Position numbers and translations under genes: made by a program
Assembly (NCBI RefSeq): GCF_003634935.1
Contig: NZ_RBXO01000001.1
Location: 7,403,501 to 7,467,500 of the forward strand
DNA length: 64,000 bases
DNA from: Saccharothrix australiensis
GTDB taxonomy: Bacteria > Actinomycetota > Actinomycetes > Mycobacteriales > Pseudonocardiaceae
Reading direction: 5' to 3'
Shown: in pieces, positions 23,886 through 32,514 of the stretch
Numbering within the stretch: the first letter of the stretch is position 1
Layout: every line of letters starts with the position of its first letter
The notes under the pieces: model-generated
The model's database searches: none
The model's input: only the letters and a program-made list of their open reading frames with translations
What the model was told of the DNA's origin: nothing

Positions 23886-24039
23886 GGGCGCAGCGTGCGG
23901 CAGCACCGCGCACCCGGCAACTCGAAACCGGGCCGGGACGTGGGCGATCCCGCGCGACTCGCGCGGTGTGGTCGGTGCCGTGCCGCCTGCGTCCGCCGTT
24001 GGTGTGCCGTCGATGCGGGCGGTGTGCCGTCGATGCCGC

Positions 24040-24114
24040 GGACCAGGCCGGATTCGAACCGGCGTACTCCCGCCCCGGAGGGCACGGGCGCGTCAACCAC
24101 TGCGCTACAGGTCC
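24040..24114 (-). tRNA. tRNA-like gene with non-canonical anticodon arm
   Basis: On the minus strand the 5' and 3' ends form a 7-base acceptor stem with one T-T mismatch. A perfect T arm (GCCGG-TTCGAAT-CCGGC) is present, along with U8 and a D arm GCGC...GCGC with GG in the loop. The anticodon arm does not fold normally: pairing leaves either a G-G mismatch or a 10-base loop around CCTCC, so the anticodon (UCC or a neighbour) is uncertain. CCA is not encoded. It may be a degenerate tRNA or an unusual functional one. It lies in the 448-base gap between genes. Confidence 0.6.
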
Positions 24115-25446: not shown

Positions 25447-25996
25447 GCCCCTCAGCCGACTCATGACCCACGAAACGGTCCTACGAGATGTAGAATCATG
25501 CCAGTGCGAAGCTCGCCGAAATACCGGACGAATTCGACATGGCCGAACCGTCCTTCGGCTGCACAGGTCAGCCAACTTACGCTTGAAGCTCCTGGCCCAG
25601 CGATACCGCCTGCACTTCATCAGGCGACAACTGGGCCCTGGCCATCTGGCGAATCTTCTTCGAAGTGAACCAGGTGACGACGGGCCTTCGATCCGCGCGC
25701 CCTGAGCCGCGGGTGCGGCCATGTCCTTTGGCCCCGCCAGGCATGCGTGGCCCGACCCGGAGGCCGGCGAACCCCCCTTGTGCACGGACTCGTCCGTCCT
25801 GCTCCGGGCATGTTGCTGGACCAGCACGCCGTCTGATGCATGTCCGAAAGGACAAGCGCCTGCCGACTGCCGGACGACTCCTACGGCTGCCGAGTGGTCC
25901 TGCCGGTCTTCGAAGGCGCTCCGGGATGCGTCAGGCGCGGTAACAACCCTGTCGGCGGCGGCGATTCCCCAGTACATCAATCGAGGGGCAATCGTC
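25447..25996. other. 550-base region without a convincing gene
   Basis: Several short frames exist; one on the minus strand (25577-25855) ends in ARAQLSPDEVQAVSLGQELQA, but I recognise no family. Bases 25806-25825 nearly match the start of the HhH-GPD gene (ATGTTGCTGGACCAGCA is shared with 27378-27394), possibly a trace of a decayed paralogue. It includes the promoter of the next gene. Confidence 0.5.
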
Positions 25997-26776
25997 ATGA
26001 CCTATCCGCAGGGTGCTCCGGAGTACGCACCCGCCGCACCGCAACCCAAGCCGAACAAGTTCGGCGCGCTCGCGTGGACCGCGCTGATCGTGGGCATCGT
26101 GGGCGTCGTCGGCTCGCCCGTCATCTTCCTGAACAACCTGACCGCCGTGGCCGCGTTCGTCGGGGCCGTGCTGGGCGTCATCGCGCTGTTCGGCACCAAG
26201 AAGGTGCTCGCGGGCATAGGCACGGCGCTGTGCGTCCTCGGGATCGTCTTCACGGTCATCGCCCAGCAGGCCGCCGTGGAGAAGCTCGACGAGATCATCA
26301 ACGGCACGACCAACCAGGGTCAGGTGAACGACGGCGACGCGGGCAACGGCCAAGCGACCCGGACCGATACGACGAACGCTCCACCGACCTGGGGCCAGCG
26401 CTACACGTGGAAGAGCGGTCTGGCCGTGGACGTCTCCGCACCCGCCGCCTGCACCCCCGGCGAGTACGCGTCACCGCGGGGCGTCGAGCGAGCCGTCAAG
26501 ATCACCGTCACGGTCACCAACGGCACGGACAAGGCGTTCGAGACGGCGGTGCTGACGATCGGCGGCGACGCCCAGTTCAACGGCAAGAAGGCGGAGCAGG
26601 TCTTCGACTCCAACGGCCAGTGCGGCGGCGGGGGCTTGGACAGCACCACGGTCCTGCCGGGCAAGACCTACACCTACGAGACGTCGTACGCGGTCGGCGC
26701 GCAGCCGGGCGAGTTGCAGGTCGTGTTCCAGCCCGATTTCGGCTCGGACAAGGCGGTTTTCGTCGGCCAGGCGTGA
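25997..26776 (+). CDS. Membrane protein with extracytoplasmic DUF4352-like domain
   Basis: This 259-residue protein has a Pro/Ala-rich cytoplasmic N-terminus and three closely spaced hydrophobic segments (about 18-85), like the DUF4190 layout. An acidic Asn/Thr linker follows, then a beta-rich domain (about 125-259) with VKITVTVTNGTDKAFETAVLTI and a Cys pair. The second domain resembles DUF4352-type immunoglobulin-like folds. A GAGGGG site precedes the ATG. The function is unknown. A large hairpin follows. Confidence 0.75.
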   Translation: MTYPQGAPEYAPAAPQPKPNKFGALAWTALIVGIVGVVGSPVIFLNNLTAVAAFVGAVLGVIALFGTKKVLAGIGTALCVLGIVFTVIAQQAAVEKLDEIINGTTNQGQVNDGDAGNGQATRTDTTNAPPTWGQRYTWKSGLAVDVSAPAACTPGEYASPRGVERAVKITVTVTNGTDKAFETAVLTIGGDAQFNGKKAEQVFDSNGQCGGGGLDSTTVLPGKTYTYETSYAVGAQPGELQVVFQPDFGSDKAVFVGQA

Positions 26777-26817
26777 GCATCGGATGCACGTAGCCGTCTT
26801 TCATGAGACCGCCACCC

Positions 26818-26873
26818 GCCTGGTCGATCAGCCGAACAGCCTCTTCGGCGGCTGTCCGGCTGATCGACCAGGC
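26818..26873. terminator. Large hairpin with 23-base arms
   Basis: GCCTGGTCGATCAGCCGAAC and its complement, with one mismatch in 23 pairs, enclose the loop CTCTTCGGCG. It starts 41 bases after the preceding stop. It probably terminates transcription, but no T-run follows and the arms are unusually long. Confidence 0.65.
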
Positions 26874-27296
26874 GGACGTGCGGCAGCGGACGCAGCGGGC
26901 GTTCGAGGTGATCCCCGGATGTGGACCCAGGAGCGCTTCTCGTACTCCAGTCCGGACTTCGAGATCATCGACACTCAAATGGGTCCCCGAGTCGCGGCGA
27001 GGGCCACACCACCGCTGTGGTAGGCGGTCGCGAATCCCGCGTCGTTCGTCCAGGCGGGCGGGCCCGGAACCAGGGTGCCGGAAACGATCCGGGAGTCGGC
27101 TCGTACGTGAACACCAAGTCGGCCTTCCGCCTCCGAGCCGCGTATACCCTGGTCAGCTCCACGATCAACCCGTTGTCCCCGCTCGATACTCGCTCCTTGC
27201 AATTCAGTCTGGCTGTCCGTCACATTGACTGGGCTGACCACCCACCGCTGGCGCTGGCGCACGGCGCCACCAAGACCACCGTGGGATGCTTCCGCC
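26874..27296. other. Region without a convincing gene
   Basis: Short frames only. A minus-strand frame at 26965-27168 encodes MIVELTRVYAARRRKADLVF and more, which looks protein-like but matches nothing I know; it may be a gene remnant. The 3' end holds the promoter of the HhH-GPD gene. Confidence 0.4.
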
Positions 27297-27875
27297 ATGA
27301 GCCCGAAGCTGTGCCTCGCCCAGGACCAGGAAGCCGACGAACTCCTGTCCGAGAGCCCTCTCGCCCTGCTCTTGGGTATGTTGCTGGACCAGCAGATCCC
27401 GATGGAGAAGGCGTTCAAGGGGCCGAAGGACATCGCCGACCGCATGGGTGGGTTCGACGTTCGTCGGATCGCCGAGGCCGGTGAGGAGGAGTTCGCCGCC
27501 GTCATGGCGCGGACCCCGGCCATCCACCGGTTCCCCGGCTCGATGGGCAAGCGGCTCCAGGCGTTGGCGCGGTACCTCGTCGAGCACTACGACGGCGACC
27601 CCGAGGCCATCTGGACGCGCGACGAACCCGACGGCAAGACCGTCCTCAAGCGGCTCAAGGAGTTGCCCGGCTACGGCGACCAGAAGGCGCGGATCTTCCT
27701 CGCCCTGCTCGGCAAGCAGCTCGGCGTGCGGCCCGAGGGCTGGCGGGAGGCCGCCGGGGCCTACGGGGAGGAGGGTTCGCGGCGCAGTGTCGCCGATGTC
27801 CGGGACAAGGTCACGCTCGCCGAGGTGCGGGAGTTCAAGAAGGCCGCCAAGGCGGCGGCGAAGGAGTCGTCCTGA
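27297..27875 (+). CDS. HhH-GPD-family base-excision-repair-like protein
   Basis: This 192-residue protein belongs to the short actinobacterial HhH-GPD group: ALLLGMLLDQQIPMEKAFKGP near the N-terminus, and a helix-hairpin-helix LKELPGYGDQKARIFLALLGKQLGV. There is no C-terminal iron-sulfur cluster. It lacks the clear lysine-plus-Asp pair of MutY/Nth enzymes, so glycosylase activity is unproven. The ATG at 27297 is chosen over the upstream GTG at 27225 because homology begins there. Its C-terminus is Lys/Ala-rich. Confidence 0.85.
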   Translation: MSPKLCLAQDQEADELLSESPLALLLGMLLDQQIPMEKAFKGPKDIADRMGGFDVRRIAEAGEEEFAAVMARTPAIHRFPGSMGKRLQALARYLVEHYDGDPEAIWTRDEPDGKTVLKRLKELPGYGDQKARIFLALLGKQLGVRPEGWREAAGAYGEEGSRRSVADVRDKVTLAEVREFKKAAKAAAKESS

Positions 27876-28016
27876 CGCGGCGTCGCGTCGGCATCGCCCT
27901 CGACCGGTCGCACCGCGCGCAGGCGGCCTCGGCGTGCGCCCGCATCACCGAGGCCGACCCGATCACCGGTTCGCCGCCGCGAGGGAAGCGGAGCGCCGGC
28001 CGCCCCTGCGGTCACG

Positions 28017-28799
28017 TCACCGGTACACGGCCAAGACCTGCAACACCACCAAAGGCCCGCGCACGACGGCGAGGTCCGCCTCCGCCTTGGCCGCCTGGCG
28101 GCGTTGCCGCCTGGTCAGCGCCGGTTGACCCGGCACCTCCAGCAGCGTGTACTCCCCCTTCCTCGGCACGATGTCGGAAACCTTGCCGAACACCGTCGAC
28201 CGCCCCTCCAACTCGTTGAACCGGCCGCCGATCAGGCCCGCCCTGATGGGCAGCACGAAGGGCGGGGCACCTGAGCCCGGATGCATCACGACGGACACCT
28301 TGTCGCCGATGGCCTCGCGCGCCTCGCCGATCAGGGTGACCATGTCGAAGAACTCCTCGCCCACGTCCACGTTCCCGGCCAGGCCGAGGTGGCTGATCTG
28401 CCGGACGACGTTCCCGATCAGCTGGTACTTGTCGGCGTTCATCATCGCGCTCACCAGGGGTGAGATCTGGATATCCCCTCGCACCTGGAAGAACGACTCC
28501 TCCTCGACGGCCTCCAGCGCGAGCGCTTCCCCGGCCCGGACGTGGTTCACCTCGCCCTCGTCCATCATGTACCGCAACAACCGGCCGAACCGGGCAGCCG
28601 AGGTCTGCCGGACCGTCTTCCTCCTGCTGTCGGACGACGACAAGCCGTTCGGCGCCACCTCGTGACCGGACGGGGTGACACCCGAGCTGTCGAGGGTGGT
28701 GTGCCGGTCCTCCTCGTCGAACAGGCCGCCCTCGATCACGGAGAGGTAACTGTCGACGGTTCGGTCATCGCAGTACAAGAAGTCCCTGAACAGGCTCAT
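28017..28799 (-). CDS. DUF6414-like protein, third gene of a TIR operon
   Basis: This 260-residue soluble protein begins MSLFRDFLYCDDRTVDSYLSVIEGGLFDEE. This matches, from memory, the DUF6414 family opening (FLYLD...V.S...Q.EGG). A middle part contains alternating hydrophobic strands and VMHPGSGAPPFVLPIR. The C-terminus is an Arg/Lys/Ala-rich stretch followed by a hydrophobic beta segment. It overlaps the TIR gene by four bases (ATGA), so the two are translated together. The function is unknown; next to a TIR effector it may sense infection or control the effector. Confidence 0.75.
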   Translation of the reverse strand: MSLFRDFLYCDDRTVDSYLSVIEGGLFDEEDRHTTLDSSGVTPSGHEVAPNGLSSSDSRRKTVRQTSAARFGRLLRYMMDEGEVNHVRAGEALALEAVEEESFFQVRGDIQISPLVSAMMNADKYQLIGNVVRQISHLGLAGNVDVGEEFFDMVTLIGEAREAIGDKVSVVMHPGSGAPPFVLPIRAGLIGGRFNELEGRSTVFGKVSDIVPRKGEYTLLEVPGQPALTRRQRRQAAKAEADLAVVRGPLVVLQVLAVYR

Positions 28800-29758
28800 C
28801 CGCCCTCTCCACCGATTTCCAGGGCATCGGACACCGCTTTGTTGGCCGCCTCGATCGCAGGCTGGAAATCACCGGCCGACAGCCAACCGCCGCCCACCGT
28901 GTCCACCTCCAGGCCCGTGCTCGCGAGCCGGTCTGCCAACGTCTTGCGCTTGGCGGCGGAGCCGTCGAACCGCACCAGCAACCGACCCGAGACATCGCTG
29001 AACGACTTGACCCGGCCGACTTCCACGAGCAGCGTGCGATTGCGGTCGATTCCGTCGGCGATGCCCGCCTCGTAGTAGACGTTCGGCCTGGCCTGCCCCC
29101 GGACCTCGGACTCGTCCGGGCCGTCCGCGTCATCGAGCAGGTCGCCCCGCAAGCGCACCAGGACGTCCGGGGTGAACAGGATGACCACCGCGTCGGACAT
29201 CTCGAACCCACGGGCGACCACCTCCCCCACGTAGGGGTTGGGCACACCGGTGCGGCGGACCGCGTGCGGCCACTCGATGACGCGCAACCCCAGCGAGCGG
29301 AGGAATTGGTGCATCGCCTCGACGATCGCCGCATCACGGCCGTGCACCAGGAAGACGCTCCGCCCGTCGACCCGGTGGCGCACGCCGGGATCACTTCGCG
29401 CGCCGTTCCCGCCGGAGCCCTCCGAGCCGCCCGGCGGTCCACCGACGTGCTCGTCGGTCACGTCCTCGGCCCGGTCGGCCGCGCGCCACTCGACCGTCGG
29501 CCCACCGGCGAAGAGCACCGGCGAACCCCGGTCTTCGCGCTCGATCTCGCGGATGAGCACGGACGACGGCACCGCGCTCGCGGACACCCGCAGCCGGGTG
29601 ATCGAGGACGCGTGGACGGTCCTCCCGTTGACCGTGATGTGGCGACCCTCGCGGTACGGCGCGAGGAACTGGGACTCCAGCTGCGCCGGAGCGAGGTCCA
29701 GTTTCACCTCGTCGTGCCGCTCACCGGCGATCGAAAGACGGGTGTGGAAATAGCTCAC
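28796..29758 (-). CDS. TIR-like (CAP12/Pycsar-type) predicted NADase
   Basis: This 320-residue protein has an N-terminal beta domain (1-75, beginning MSYFHTRLSIAGERHDEVKL) and a Gly-rich linker (about 105-130). A C-terminal TIR-like domain (PF10137 type) carries SVFLVHGRD at 134-142, VIEWPHAV, SDAVVILFTPD, GQARPNVYYEAG with the catalytic-type Glu230, and LLVEVGRVKSFSDVSGRLLVRFDG. The glutamate and phosphate-binding segments look intact. Related proteins degrade NAD+ in CBASS, Pycsar and other anti-phage systems after binding a cyclic nucleotide, but no cyclase gene is present. The GTG at 29758 overlaps the preceding gene by four bases. Confidence 0.88.
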   Translation of the reverse strand: MSYFHTRLSIAGERHDEVKLDLAPAQLESQFLAPYREGRHITVNGRTVHASSITRLRVSASAVPSSVLIREIEREDRGSPVLFAGGPTVEWRAADRAEDVTDEHVGGPPGGSEGSGGNGARSDPGVRHRVDGRSVFLVHGRDAAIVEAMHQFLRSLGLRVIEWPHAVRRTGVPNPYVGEVVARGFEMSDAVVILFTPDVLVRLRGDLLDDADGPDESEVRGQARPNVYYEAGIADGIDRNRTLLVEVGRVKSFSDVSGRLLVRFDGSAAKRKTLADRLASTGLEVDTVGGGWLSAGDFQPAIEAANKAVSDALEIGGEGG

Positions 29759-30516
29759 GGACGCTCTTCCCCGTATTCGTGCCAGGCGCTGACCACGCCG
29801 CCGGCCGCGGCGGTCCGGTGGCACAGGTACTCGGCGAGCTGGTCGGCGGCGGTGTCGAGCTGCGCCGCCACCTGGTAGCGGCTCATGCCGAGCCGCCTGG
29901 CCGCGGTGGACCGGTCGTTGTCGTCGATGAGCACGTGCGAGACGAGGTCGGCCTGTTGTGGCGTGACGACACCCGAGCGCATCGCCTCCGCGAGGACGAT
30001 GTCCGGGTGCCCACCCGCCGGGCGGTGCCGCCGAACCGTCCCGGTGGGCTCCGAGCGGCCCGCCGACCGCAGCTCCCTCCGGCACACCTCGTGCCCCCGC
30101 CGGCGGGCGGCTCCGTGGAGTTGCGCGTAGATCCGCGGTGTCCGGGCCTCCGCCAGGTCGAGTTCCTGGAGGAAGCCCGCGACCACCTCGGATTCGAGGT
30201 CGACGTGGTCGACGGGGAAACGCCCGCGGAGCGCGGTGACGATGTGCCTCAGCCCCGGCCTCATCATTCCGGCGGCCACGGTCGTCCACGGGTCGGGGAT
30301 CGCCTGCGCCCGCTCGACCAGCTCCGCCCACACCGCGTCCTTGGTTATCCAGGCCGTTCCCCGGCGGAGGAGCAGTGCCCGCAGCTCGTCCGGCCGCAGC
30401 GCTTTCGCGGGCAGCCCGCAGCCGAGCGCGGCGCAGTCGAGCAGCACCGGTTTCGAACCGGAAGACAGTGCGAGGAACTCGCGCTCGATCGCGTTAAGGT
30501 GCGATGGCGAAGACAT
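29755..30516 (-). CDS. Sigma-70-region-4-like DNA-binding protein, first gene of TIR operon
   Basis: This 253-residue protein has a helical N-terminal part with ESEVVAGFLQELDLAEARTPRIYAQLHGAARRRGHEVCRRE. A C-terminal helix-turn-helix, RSTAARRLGMSRYQVAAQLD, resembles sigma region 4. A region-2 core is not obvious, so it may be a regulator rather than a true sigma factor. GAAAGG lies 9 bases before the ATG. Overlap with the TIR gene (GTGA) makes this the leading member of a coupled operon that it probably controls. Confidence 0.75.
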   Translation of the reverse strand: MSSPSHLNAIEREFLALSSGSKPVLLDCAALGCGLPAKALRPDELRALLLRRGTAWITKDAVWAELVERAQAIPDPWTTVAAGMMRPGLRHIVTALRGRFPVDHVDLESEVVAGFLQELDLAEARTPRIYAQLHGAARRRGHEVCRRELRSAGRSEPTGTVRRHRPAGGHPDIVLAEAMRSGVVTPQQADLVSHVLIDDNDRSTAARRLGMSRYQVAAQLDTAADQLAEYLCHRTAAAGGVVSAWHEYGEERP

Positions 30517-30983
30517 CAGCTGACGCCTTTCGGGAGGAGGTGGGGACCAGTCACCCAATTAATGCCCGATCAATGCCGAAGCCGGCCCGGAAGTCACCGG
30601 AACGAGTGATATGCCCTCGGCACGGCGGGCTTTCCCGGTAGGGTTCGGAACTCGCGCTCTTCGACCGGGAGGTCAATGGACGAGGTCCACGCACCGGACC
30701 GCATTGATGTGGTCGATCATCACCGCGCCGCTACGAGACGAATTTTCGCCACCGCCTCGGCGGCCTTCTCGAACACCCCGCCCTCGGCGCGCGGGAATCC
30801 TGCTCAGGGCATCGGCGACGCGCGGCACCACCGGCCGGCAAGGCCGCGGCACACGGGCGCACGGCGCGTCGCGCAGGCCAGCGGCACGCGGGCACACGGG
30901 GCGTCGCGCACGCCGGTCGCGCACGTGGTTTCGCGCTGCGGCCGAGCGCGGGCGATGTCGGTGGCTCGGGTTGGAGTCCCCGC
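30517..30983. other. Intergenic region upstream of the TIR operon
   Basis: The part next to 30516 is AT-richer (ATTAATTGGG on the minus strand) and probably holds the operon promoter. Further on, roughly 35-base imperfect direct repeats rich in CACGGGCGCACGG lie at about 30845-30925. No gene is convincing. Confidence 0.4.
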
Positions 30984-31245
30984 GTGGGACTGCCGGGATC
31001 GGCCGATCCCACACCGCTGGGGCAGGGCGGGTTCGCCACCGTCTACCGGGCGCGGCAGGTGGGGTTGGGGCGGGACGTCGCGGTCAAGGTGGACGACCGC
31101 GTGTCGCGGACCGAGCGTGATCGGCGGCGGTTCCTGCGGGAGGCCGAGGGCGGCTCCACGGTCACCCCAGGACGCCCTCAGCCCCGGCTACGCGCCGCCC
31201 GAGGCGTTCGCGGGCCGAGGTGATGAAGGCCGACACCCGCCCCAC
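30984..31245 (+). pseudogene. Remnant of a serine/threonine protein kinase gene
   Basis: The frame at 30984 encodes a kinase N-lobe: the glycine loop LGQGGFATVYRAR and the lysine strand DVAVKV, then DRRRFLREAE. It then breaks, and a different frame a few codons on encodes SPGYAPPEAFAG, like the activation-loop end of bacterial kinases. The whole middle, including the catalytic HRD and DFG parts, is missing, so this is an internally deleted and frameshifted relic. Confidence 0.75.
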
Positions 31246-31302
31246 GCTGGACACGTCGACTTGGGAGATCGCCGCCGTCGCGTTCAGCGAGAGCGACCGG
31301 AA

Positions 31303-32514
31303 CTACTTCCACTGCTTGGCGAAGGACCCCGAGTCGGGCGAGGCGACCACCAGCGCGTTCGGCTCGGCGGGCTCCTGACGCGGCGGGCGCAGCGCGAGGA
31401 CCAGCAGCACCAGCGCGACCACGGCGAGCAGCGACGCGATGGGCGCCAGCGGCACCAGGCCGACCCAGCTGATCACCACGCCGCCGACCACGCCGGACAG
31501 GCCGACGCCCAGGTAGATCGCGGACGCGTTGAGCGACAGCAGCAGGCCGCTGTTCGCGGGCGCGAGCGCGATCAGCCACGTCTGGATCGGCGGGTTCGAC
31601 GCCCACGTCAGCGCGCCCCACACGAACAGCGCCACGGCCGCGCCCGCGACGGTGGACGTGGTCAGCGGCAGCGTCGCCAGCACGACCGTGAAGGAGCTGA
31701 ACAGCACCAGGAGCAGCTTGCGGATCCCGAACCGGTCGGTGAGGCGGCCCGACGCCCAGTTGCCGAACGCGCCGCCGACGCCGTAGGCGACGAGCAGCCC
31801 GCTGATCACCGCGCCGTCGACGTGGGCGGTGGCCGTGAGCAGCGGCGCGATGTAGTTGAACACCGTGAACACCGCCAGGCACACCAGCACGGTCAGCATC
31901 AGCACCATGACCACGCGCCGGTCGGCGGCGGGCGCGAACCGCTCGCGCAGGCGGACGCCGGGCGGCGGCTCCACGCGCGGCAGGCCCAGGCGCACGGCGA
32001 CAGCGGCGACCGCGGTGACGCCCGCGATCAGCCAGAACACGCCCTGGTAGCCGAGCGGTCCGCCCAGCAGGTTGCCCGCGGGCACGCCGAACACCAGCGA
32101 GAACGTCAGGCCGCCGAACACCAGGGCGACGGCCCGGCCACGGCGGTCCGGCGTGCTGAGCACGGTCGCCACGAGCGTCGCGGCGGGTGTGTAGACGGCC
32201 GCGCCGAGCGCGCTGACCACGCGGGCCGCCAGCAGCAGCGGGTAGTTCGGGGCGAGCGCCGCGAACAGGTTGCCCACGGCGGAGACGCCCAGCGCGGTGA
32301 CCAGCAGCGTCCGGCGCTCCCACCGGCCGGTGACGGCCGCGAGCAGCGGTGACGAGATCGCGTAGGCGATGGCGAACGCGGTGAGCAGTTGGCCTGCGGT
32401 GGCGTGCGAGACGTTCAGCTCGCGGCTCACGGCGGGCAGGACGCCGGAGACGATGTACCCGCTGGTGCCGATGGCGAACGCCCCGGCCGTGAGCAGGTAG
32501 GTGCGGGCAGACAT
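31303..32514 (-). CDS. MFS drug-efflux-type transporter
   Basis: This 403-residue protein has about 12 transmembrane helices and the DHA1-like motifs SRELNVSHATAGQLLTAFAIAYA and RRTLLVTAL after helix 2. It is probably a proton-coupled exporter of small toxic compounds such as phenicols or arabinose-like sugars. It is divergent from an ArsR-type regulator across an 86-base gap with inverted repeats, so the regulator probably controls it. Confidence 0.88.
   Translation of the reverse strand: MSARTYLLTAGAFAIGTSGYIVSGVLPAVSRELNVSHATAGQLLTAFAIAYAISSPLLAAVTGRWERRTLLVTALGVSAVGNLFAALAPNYPLLLAARVVSALGAAVYTPAATLVATVLSTPDRRGRAVALVFGGLTFSLVFGVPAGNLLGGPLGYQGVFWLIAGVTAVAAVAVRLGLPRVEPPPGVRLRERFAPAADRRVVMVLMLTVLVCLAVFTVFNYIAPLLTATAHVDGAVISGLLVAYGVGGAFGNWASGRLTDRFGIRKLLLVLFSSFTVVLATLPLTTSTVAGAAVALFVWGALTWASNPPIQTWLIALAPANSGLLLSLNASAIYLGVGLSGVVGGVVISWVGLVPLAPIASLLAVVALVLLVLALRPPRQEPAEPNALVVASPDSGSFAKQWK

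What the first reader, a model, noticed from the sequence alone, without database searches (positions are those of the whole stretch)
28017..30516. Candidate undescribed defence operon: sigma-4-like regulator, TIR-like NADase, DUF6414-like protein
Three genes overlap by four bases each, so they are produced together. The middle protein has an intact TIR-like domain (Glu230 in NVYYEAG) of the type used by CBASS/Pycsar effectors, but no nucleotide cyclase is encoded. An unusual N-terminal beta domain replaces the usual ligand domain. The DUF6414-like partner and the HTH protein have no known role in such systems. A decayed kinase and an intergenic repeat adjoin it, as in defence islands.
Basis: partly seen in the sequence, partly recalled or inferred. 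Interest (0 to 1): 0.78.

Follow-up and report, generated by a model that had tools for sequence, protein, structure and literature searches.

The report
Mobile TIR–DUF6414 defence gene pair
Two neighbouring bacterial genes, one for a likely NAD-destroying suicide enzyme and one for a protein of unknown function, appear to travel together as a probable anti-virus module on mobile DNA that inserts into one DNA-repair gene.

Summary
The three overlapping genes are real, but the conserved unit is two genes, B (TIR) and C (DUF6414). B's R224, N226, E230 and D255 align with SfSTING pocket residues R78, N80, E84 and D110, and are invariant in 11 of 11 aligned homologs. Besides the window I found two full-length B proteins; both are followed directly by C. 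A distant DUF6414–TIR pair has the reverse order. Gene A belongs to a large actinobacterial family and was not seen with B or C in any other locus examined. The 'decayed kinase' is the ancestral neighbour, not island content. All three B–C pairs lie at an HhH-GPD repair gene (TIGR03252). That gene is the integration site of AICE-like elements (serine recombinase, RepSA; no conjugation gene found) that carry a complete replacement copy of it with cargo behind it: DUF4917, PNP, NACHT, TIR–DUF6414 and others. The window keeps an attL-like fragment, a recombinase scrap and an inverted HhH tail. Best reading: a mobile two-gene abortive-infection cassette, with a TIR NADase controlled by DUF6414. 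No structure or function could be tested. Verdict: new variant of a known kind, in an unusual mobile setting.

The parts
29755..30516 (-). Gene A, 253 aa, HTH-type protein of a large actinobacterial paralogous family; local addition to the operon
28796..29758 (-). Gene B, 320 aa (GTG start), N-terminal domain plus CAP12/Pycsar-type TIR domain (residues 135-265); predicted pocket R224, N226, E230, D255
28017..28799 (-). Gene C, 260 aa, DUF6414 (PF19952)
27297..27875 (+). Complete HhH-GPD base-excision-repair-type gene (TIGR03252), convergent with the operon; target gene or element-borne copy of the integrative element family
27387..27407 (+). Intact attB-type site inside the HhH-GPD gene (GACCAGCAG core plus ATCCCGATGGAG)
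25754..25842 (+). attL-like remnant: decayed HhH 5' fragment ending at the GACCAGCAC core (25819-25827) followed by a CTGATGCATG arm
25861..25956 (+). Scrap of the element's large serine recombinase (query residues 87-118, 47% identity, E 6e-4)
30726..30819 (-). Decayed, inverted tail of an HhH-GPD gene (95 aligned positions, 76% identity), upstream of gene A
30841..30915 (.). 35-base repeat, 2.2 copies, no role shown
30953..31379 (+). Remnant of the Ser/Thr kinase gene that is the ancestral neighbour of the HhH-GPD gene; internal deletions relative to siblings

Best explanation
B and C form a two-gene anti-phage (abortive-infection-type) cassette. B is a TIR enzyme that, once triggered, attacks NAD+ and stops or kills the infected cell. 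C (DUF6414) is its partner, most likely the part that senses infection and releases or assembles B. The cassette travels as cargo of an AICE-like integrative element whose large serine recombinase splits an HhH-GPD repair gene at codons of about 28-35. The element carries a complete replacement copy of that gene, with the cargo behind it. In this genome the element is decayed and gene A has been added in front of B, probably as a local regulator. Shown: the genes, the conserved pair, the conserved TIR pocket residues, the integration site, the element architecture in relatives and the empty site. Inferred: NAD+ hydrolysis, phage protection, the sensor role of C (I give that step about 0.4), the recombinase acting on this site, and the regulatory role of A.
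For: TIR family and pocket: PF10137; profile alignment to CAP12/TIR-STING 7un8 and PycTIR 8jsj, with SfSTING R78, N80, E84 and D110 named in PMC9402430 (passage read); R224, N226, E230 and D255 invariant in 11 of 11. Pairing: both other full-length B proteins found (57% and 55-56% identical) are followed directly by a C homolog; a distant pair has DUF6414 first and TIR second (G290). Cassette boundary: in Labedaea the HhH 3' fragment begins about 80 bases from B's start, which leaves no room for gene A. Mobile setting: HhH-GPD gene in 222 of 249 family genomes; fragments broken at codons 26-35 in 12 of the 18 genomes with two or more matches; attL/attR-type half-sites; recombinase, RepSA, complete HhH copy and both fragments in five genomes; defence-type cargo; empty site in G247.
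Against: No structure or activity was tested. DUF6414 is usually without TIR: TIR lies beside it in 3 of 37 genomes from the two DUF6414 searches, or 4 of 38 with G030, which was found through its TIR gene. So C is not simply a TIR subunit. Proteins matching B over both its N-terminal part and TIR occur without annotated DUF6414 on Acinetobacter plasmids, so B may work alone. No homolog of C was found in phage or plasmid records or in a pattern-limited viral-contig scan. Full B-C pairs are few (three). The cargo examples were chosen by me, without a background control, and no conjugation gene was found in the element genes tested.
Confidence: 0.6

Rival explanations
1. Thoeris-like signalling: B is a TIR signal synthase that makes an ADP-ribose-type messenger, and C is the receptor that turns the messenger into growth arrest.
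For: A TIR relative of B (38% identical, L017) is followed by a gene matching ThsA_Macro, the Thoeris effector (E 1.4e-51), so this TIR clade can serve Thoeris. In Thoeris ThsB makes the signal and ThsA is the effector (start of the abstract of PMC11204291 seen in the listing).
Against: C shows no Macro, SLOG, SIR2 or other effector match and is usually encoded without a TIR of the kinds sought. The L017 TIR lacks B's N-terminal domain.
Confidence: 0.2
2. Toxin-antitoxin pair: B is a toxic NADase and C is simply its antitoxin.
For: Overlapping two-gene layout and a minimal two-gene cassette in Labedaea.
Against: C homologs stand without TIR in most genomes examined, which an obligate antitoxin would not. 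B-type proteins also occur without annotated C.
Confidence: 0.12
3. A true three-gene system in which gene A is an essential component.
For: The four-base overlap A-B suggests one transcript and coupled translation in this genome.
Against: A's family is large (matches in 110 of 249 genomes) and was not found with B or C elsewhere (0 of 14 and 0 of 50 loci). In Labedaea there is no room for A before B. In Actinokineospora only 280 bases before B are held, so A cannot be excluded there.
Confidence: 0.06

Closest known systems
PADLOC candidate PDC-S35 (TIR-type defence candidates)
   Same: B matches five PDC-S35 profiles, best E 7.3e-16, including its N-terminal part; the reversed-order pair's TIR matches at 3e-64.
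   Different: PDC-S35 is listed as a single-gene candidate (meaning of the S label recalled); here it is coupled to DUF6414. Match strength is moderate and the library records no function.
CBASS TIR-STING (Cap12) and PycTIR effectors
   Same: Same TIR subfamily PF10137, with the pocket residues conserved.
   Different: No STING or other sensor-domain match in B and no cyclase match in the operon; PycTIR profile match weak (E 6.7e-4).
Thoeris with ThsA Macro
   Same: A TIR relative of B (L017) neighbours ThsA_Macro.
   Different: The window has DUF6414 in place of ThsA.
IetA/TRIP13-like AAA+ ATPase plus long DUF6414 gene pairs
   Same: Same partner family DUF6414 in a two-gene layout, seen in four genomes (IetA/TRIP13 likeness tested in three of the four).
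   Different: AAA+ ATPase instead of TIR; the DUF6414 proteins are longer (444-487 aa).
AICEs with serine recombinase and RepSA (Ghinet et al. 2011, PMC3218068; passages read)
   Same: RepSA initiator, serine recombinase, insertion into a protein-coding gene. The paper reports Faln2929 disrupting a putative endonuclease gene and being excised.
   Different: Here the element carries a complete replacement copy of the split gene with defence-type cargo behind it, and no conjugation gene was found; my paper searches showed no description of that.

Membership tests
CAP12/Pycsar TIR NADase | PF10137 domain above gathering score | tested here: met
   71.7 bits against a 24.7 cut-off
CAP12/Pycsar TIR NADase | Catalytic Glu and pocket Arg/Asn/Asp | tested here: met
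   E230, R224, N226 and D255 align with SfSTING E84, R78, N80 and D110 (by sequence profile, numbering offset inferred); invariant in 11 of 11
CAP12/Pycsar TIR NADase | NAD+ hydrolysis | not testable with these tools
   needs enzyme assay
CBASS or Pycsar system | Nucleotide cyclase in the operon | tested here: not met
   A, B and C matched no cyclase model in Pfam, PADLOC or NCBIfam up to E 1; genes outside the operon were not scanned for one
PDC-S35 | Match to PADLOC PDC-S35 profiles | tested here: met
   five profiles, best E 7.3e-16
PDC-S35 | Acts as a single gene | tested here: inconclusive
   all 3 full-length copies found are coupled to DUF6414, but two plasmid relatives looked at are not
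DUF6414 | PF19952 over gathering score | tested here: met
   106.2 bits against 25
Thoeris | ThsA (SIR2-SLOG or Macro) partner | tested here: not met
   no such match in A or C
Serine-recombinase AICE | Recombinase, Rep and att sites present | tested here: inconclusive
   met in relatives; in the window only an attL-like fragment, a recombinase scrap and an HhH tail remain
Serine-recombinase AICE | Conjugation (Tra) gene in the element | tested here: inconclusive
   none of nine further element genes from five genomes matched a Tra family; not all element genes were scanned, so the elements may be mobilizable rather than conjugative

The most novel reading that the evidence does not exclude
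A family of actinobacterial integrative elements breaks a housekeeping DNA-repair gene, carries a complete replacement copy of it, and reserves the place behind that copy for exchangeable anti-phage modules. The replacement copy is itself a fresh target, so elements stack into defence arrays. DUF6414 is a general infection-sensing switch that has been plugged into different enzymes (TIR NADases here, TRIP13/IetA-like AAA+ ATPases elsewhere).
Probability: 0.3. Interest if true: 0.75.

Novelty: new variant of a known kind. Interest (0 to 1): 0.58.

Why it matters
DUF6414 is a domain of unknown function in Pfam, and no paper in the held library names it. Its pairing with a TIR enzyme that has conserved pocket residues gives it a testable role. 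The integration site gives an independent way to look for further defence genes: whatever lies between a complete HhH-GPD copy and the split 3' fragment is cargo. Relatives show DUF4917, PNP and NACHT genes there, and unclassified ones (DUF4231, a zinc-ribbon protein) that become candidates.

Tried and rejected
Rejected: (a) a three-gene system; (b) kinase decay as island evidence; (c) an early idea of mine that the element restores the gene by carrying only its 3' part: the half-sites and complete copies fit an element that carries the whole gene; (d) a phage or plasmid home for C: no match in 50,697 phage records or 72,556 plasmid records, and none confirmed among 14 pattern matches in viral contigs; likewise none for B among 107; (e) a cognate recombinase elsewhere in this genome: none at E 1e-5 (the tool warns that an empty answer without a control shows little).

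Led nowhere: the first genome-contig scan with C alone found no relative. PDB sequence searches with B or C alone found nothing up to E 1. Paper searches: DUF6414 0 papers, PDC-S35 0, HhH-GPD with attB 0, HhH-GPD with actinomycete and genomic island 0; a wider one listed 20 of 2,732 papers, none of the 20 with the word HhH-GPD. PMC13142454 was opened as outline and abstract only and not used. Structure prediction: both jobs were interrupted, then the tool was off.

Against or unexplained: the HhH tail at 30726-30819 is inverted relative to the HhH gene, while intact relatives have their 3' fragment in the same orientation; a local inversion is a guess. A DUF4190-like gene (name by eye) lies between the attL-like remnant and the HhH gene here, but before the 5' fragment in L088 and L089. 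By similarity alone the attL-like fragment (42.0 bits) hardly exceeds the next control segment (38.9); its identification rests on the core, the arm and the recombinase scrap beside it. Six of the 18 genomes re-searched show other kinds of extra match (frame-split copy, contig-edge pieces, partial or distant copies).
Full report
Observation. The finding's three genes are present on the minus strand: A 29755-30516, B 28796-29758 (GTG start) and C 28017-28799. The junctions are GTGA and ATGA, each a four-base overlap, and all three have the codon-position GC of real genes. B carries a CAP12/Pycsar TIR domain (PF10137, E 6.6e-20) and C is DUF6414 over the full profile (E 3.4e-30); A has only sub-threshold HTH matches.

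The TIR pocket. A profile of 11 TIR homologs found CAP12 (TIR-STING, 7un8, E 1.6e-4) and, more weakly, PycTIR (8jsj, E 0.013); 3 of the 5 listed matches were CAP12 or PycTIR chains, the other 2 unrelated proteins. In that alignment B's R224, N226, E230 and D255 fall on the SfSTING residues that PMC9402430 names as R78, N80, catalytic E84 and D110 (passage read; the eight-residue offset between chain and paper numbering is my inference). All four are invariant in 11 of 11 aligned homologs. That B is an active NADase follows from this family, not from a test.

The N-terminal domain. The best PADLOC match is PDC-S35 (7.3e-16), with its best stretch over residues 19-161. Acinetobacter plasmid proteins match B over residues 3-286 at 24-25% identity (3 of 13 plasmid records cover at least 80% of the query). 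Two of these three were looked at, and their annotation shows no DUF6414 neighbour (the plasmid gene tables are incomplete, but C also has no match in any plasmid record). The domain is therefore not unique to this operon. Its fold is untested.

Which genes belong together. A search of 249 family genomes with B found matches in 10, the window's own included; two others are full length, and both are followed directly by a C homolog. In one (L012) the genes overlap by four bases; in the other (L011) about 16 bases separate them (read). The other seven matches cover the TIR part only, and no C homolog was found within the 1.5 kb flanks. A search of 298 order genomes with the alignment of B found matches in 7, of which only the window and G078 are full length; five TIR-only loci from it show no DUF6414. 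In the genus, C was found in 1 of 25 genomes, the window's own. A pattern-limited genome-contig scan with C's alignment confirmed 2 of 81 stretches and named the two relatives: Actinokineospora sp. NBRC 105648 and Labedaea rhizosphaerae DSM 45361 (contig lengths equal those of G078 and G030). A distant pair in G290 has DUF6414 first and a TIR protein second.

Gene A. A's homologs occur in 110 of 249 family genomes, its own included. Of 14 loci fetched with them (L103-L116), at least four place a WhiB-like gene beside it (L105, L106, L107, L109; L106 and L109 tested and matched to PF02467; the other two by eye). None of the 14 has a TIR or DUF6414 match, and none of 50 TIR or DUF6414 loci has an A match. 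Caveats: in L012 only 280 bases before B are held, 24 of the 50 loci (and the 14) have flanks of about 1.5 kb or less, and some of the 50 hold only a TIR relative.

DUF6414 at large. It is present in 19 of 249 order genomes and 22 of 396 phylum genomes; four genomes are in both lists, so 37 in all. TIR lies next to DUF6414 in 3 of the 37 (G000, G078, G290), or 4 of 38 with G030, which was found through its TIR gene. Only TIRs recognisable by two models built here were sought, and the 18 phylum-only genomes had 1.5 kb flanks. Four others (G444, G330, G250, G780) have an AAA+ ATPase directly before DUF6414, with IetA/TRIP13-like PADLOC matches in the three of them that were tested. Many of the rest look like lone genes in my crude gene calls.

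The site. In G247 (same genus) the HhH-GPD gene and a Ser/Thr kinase gene are neighbours: the aligned blocks are 20 bases apart and the called genes 39 bases apart. In the window 3.09 kb (27864-30952) with the whole operon lies between them, and the kinase has internal deletions. The HhH-GPD gene (TIGR03252, E 2.6e-92) is present in 222 of 249 family genomes. Eighteen genomes with two or more matches were searched again. In 12 of the 18, extra matches are 3' fragments that begin at codons 26-32 (9 genomes) or 5' fragments that end at codons 33-35 (5 genomes, two of them also with 3' fragments). In the other 6 they are of other kinds (frame-split copy, contig-edge pieces, partial or distant copies).

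The element. I looked at 25 stretches around breakpoints and complete genes for the core GACCAGCAG with at most one change; it was printed at the right place in 15 (5 of the 5'-fragment, 5 of the 3'-fragment and 5 of the complete type), once at a wrong place, and not in the others. The 15 show attB-type, attL-type and attR-type versions sharing GACCAGCA, with CATACAT-like and ATGTATG-like arms on opposite sides. In five genomes (G110, G206, G030, G078, G220) a 5' HhH fragment, a serine recombinase, a RepSA gene, a complete HhH gene and a 3' fragment follow in order (the 5' fragments of G030 and G078 are weak, E 6e-4 to 1e-6). Recombinase was tested by Pfam in three of the five and RepSA in two; the others rest on tblastn. 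This is an AICE-like element that splits the gene and carries its own complete copy. Nine further element genes gave HNH, NUDIX and weak HTH or TPR matches or none, and no conjugation gene, so the elements may be mobilizable rather than conjugative. In L012 a complete copy and two 3' fragments alternate with cargo, as expected if later elements enter earlier elements' copies. Serine-recombinase AICEs in protein-coding genes are known, and one Frankia element disrupts a putative endonuclease gene (PMC3218068, passages read); I cannot say whether that is the same gene.

Cargo. Between the complete copy and a 3' fragment lie: TIR-DUF6414 (L011), a PNP-type gene (L012), DUF4917 (L090), DUF4231 (L088) and a NACHT gene (L152). 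In L012 a zinc-ribbon gene follows the first 3' fragment and TIR-DUF6414 follows the second. In L099 AAA15 and GmrSD genes lie between a complete copy and a second, divergent copy whose core was not verified. Of eight cargo proteins that I chose, six match PADLOC models and two, both from L088, do not; three of the eight lie outside a copy-to-fragment interval. There was no background control, so this is suggestive only.

The window's remnants. A 76%-identical, inverted HhH tail at 30726-30819 scores 68.3 bits, the best of 256 overlapping control segments of the window. The next place, at 42.0 bits, is an HhH 5' fragment at 25754-25826; the one after that has 38.9, so similarity alone would not single it out. 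It ends in the attL-type core and arm, and just behind it is a short recombinase match (25861-25956, E 6e-4). No RepSA, NUDIX or HTH gene of the element was found in the window, and no recombinase match in the genome at E 1e-5. The element here is decayed, and the order of its remains is not fully explained.

Mechanism. Most likely B is the effector and C the control or sensing partner of a two-gene abortive-infection cassette. A Thoeris-like signal route is the main rival, because a TIR relative of B neighbours ThsA_Macro in L017. The case for defence rests on the effector's family and the company it keeps at the site; nothing here shows phage protection.

Noticed in passing
L017:4757-6561: A TIR relative of gene B (38% identity) is followed after 47 bases by a gene matching ThsA_Macro (PF20016), so this TIR clade may also serve Thoeris.
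   Followed up: partly
L040:4910-7514, L041:5157-7885, L049:6235-8747, L120:2-2817: Recurrent pair: AAA+ ATPase with an N-terminal extension (IetA/TRIP13-like in the three tested) directly before a long DUF6414 gene.
   Followed up: partly
L012:2070-5027: Complete HhH-GPD gene and two 3' fragments alternating with cargo genes: a stacked array of integrated elements.
   Followed up: yes
L155:6197-8277: A different serine recombinase (41% identity) lies beside an HhH 3' fragment 66 kb from the complete gene of G163: larger elements may use the same site.
   Followed up: no
window 25957-27290: A DUF4190-like membrane-protein gene (name by eye) lies between the attL-like remnant and the HhH gene, unlike the order in L088 and L089.
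   Followed up: no
L134:1-2349: A DUF6414 gene beside a RepSA-like gene in another family, perhaps another element carrying DUF6414 (seen by eye).
   Followed up: no
L126:1492-2743: DUF6414 gene preceded after 13 bases by a Fic-family gene (PF02661).
   Followed up: no
window 24038-24114: tRNA-Gly (ccc), minus strand, about 3 kb from the HhH-GPD gene.
   Followed up: no
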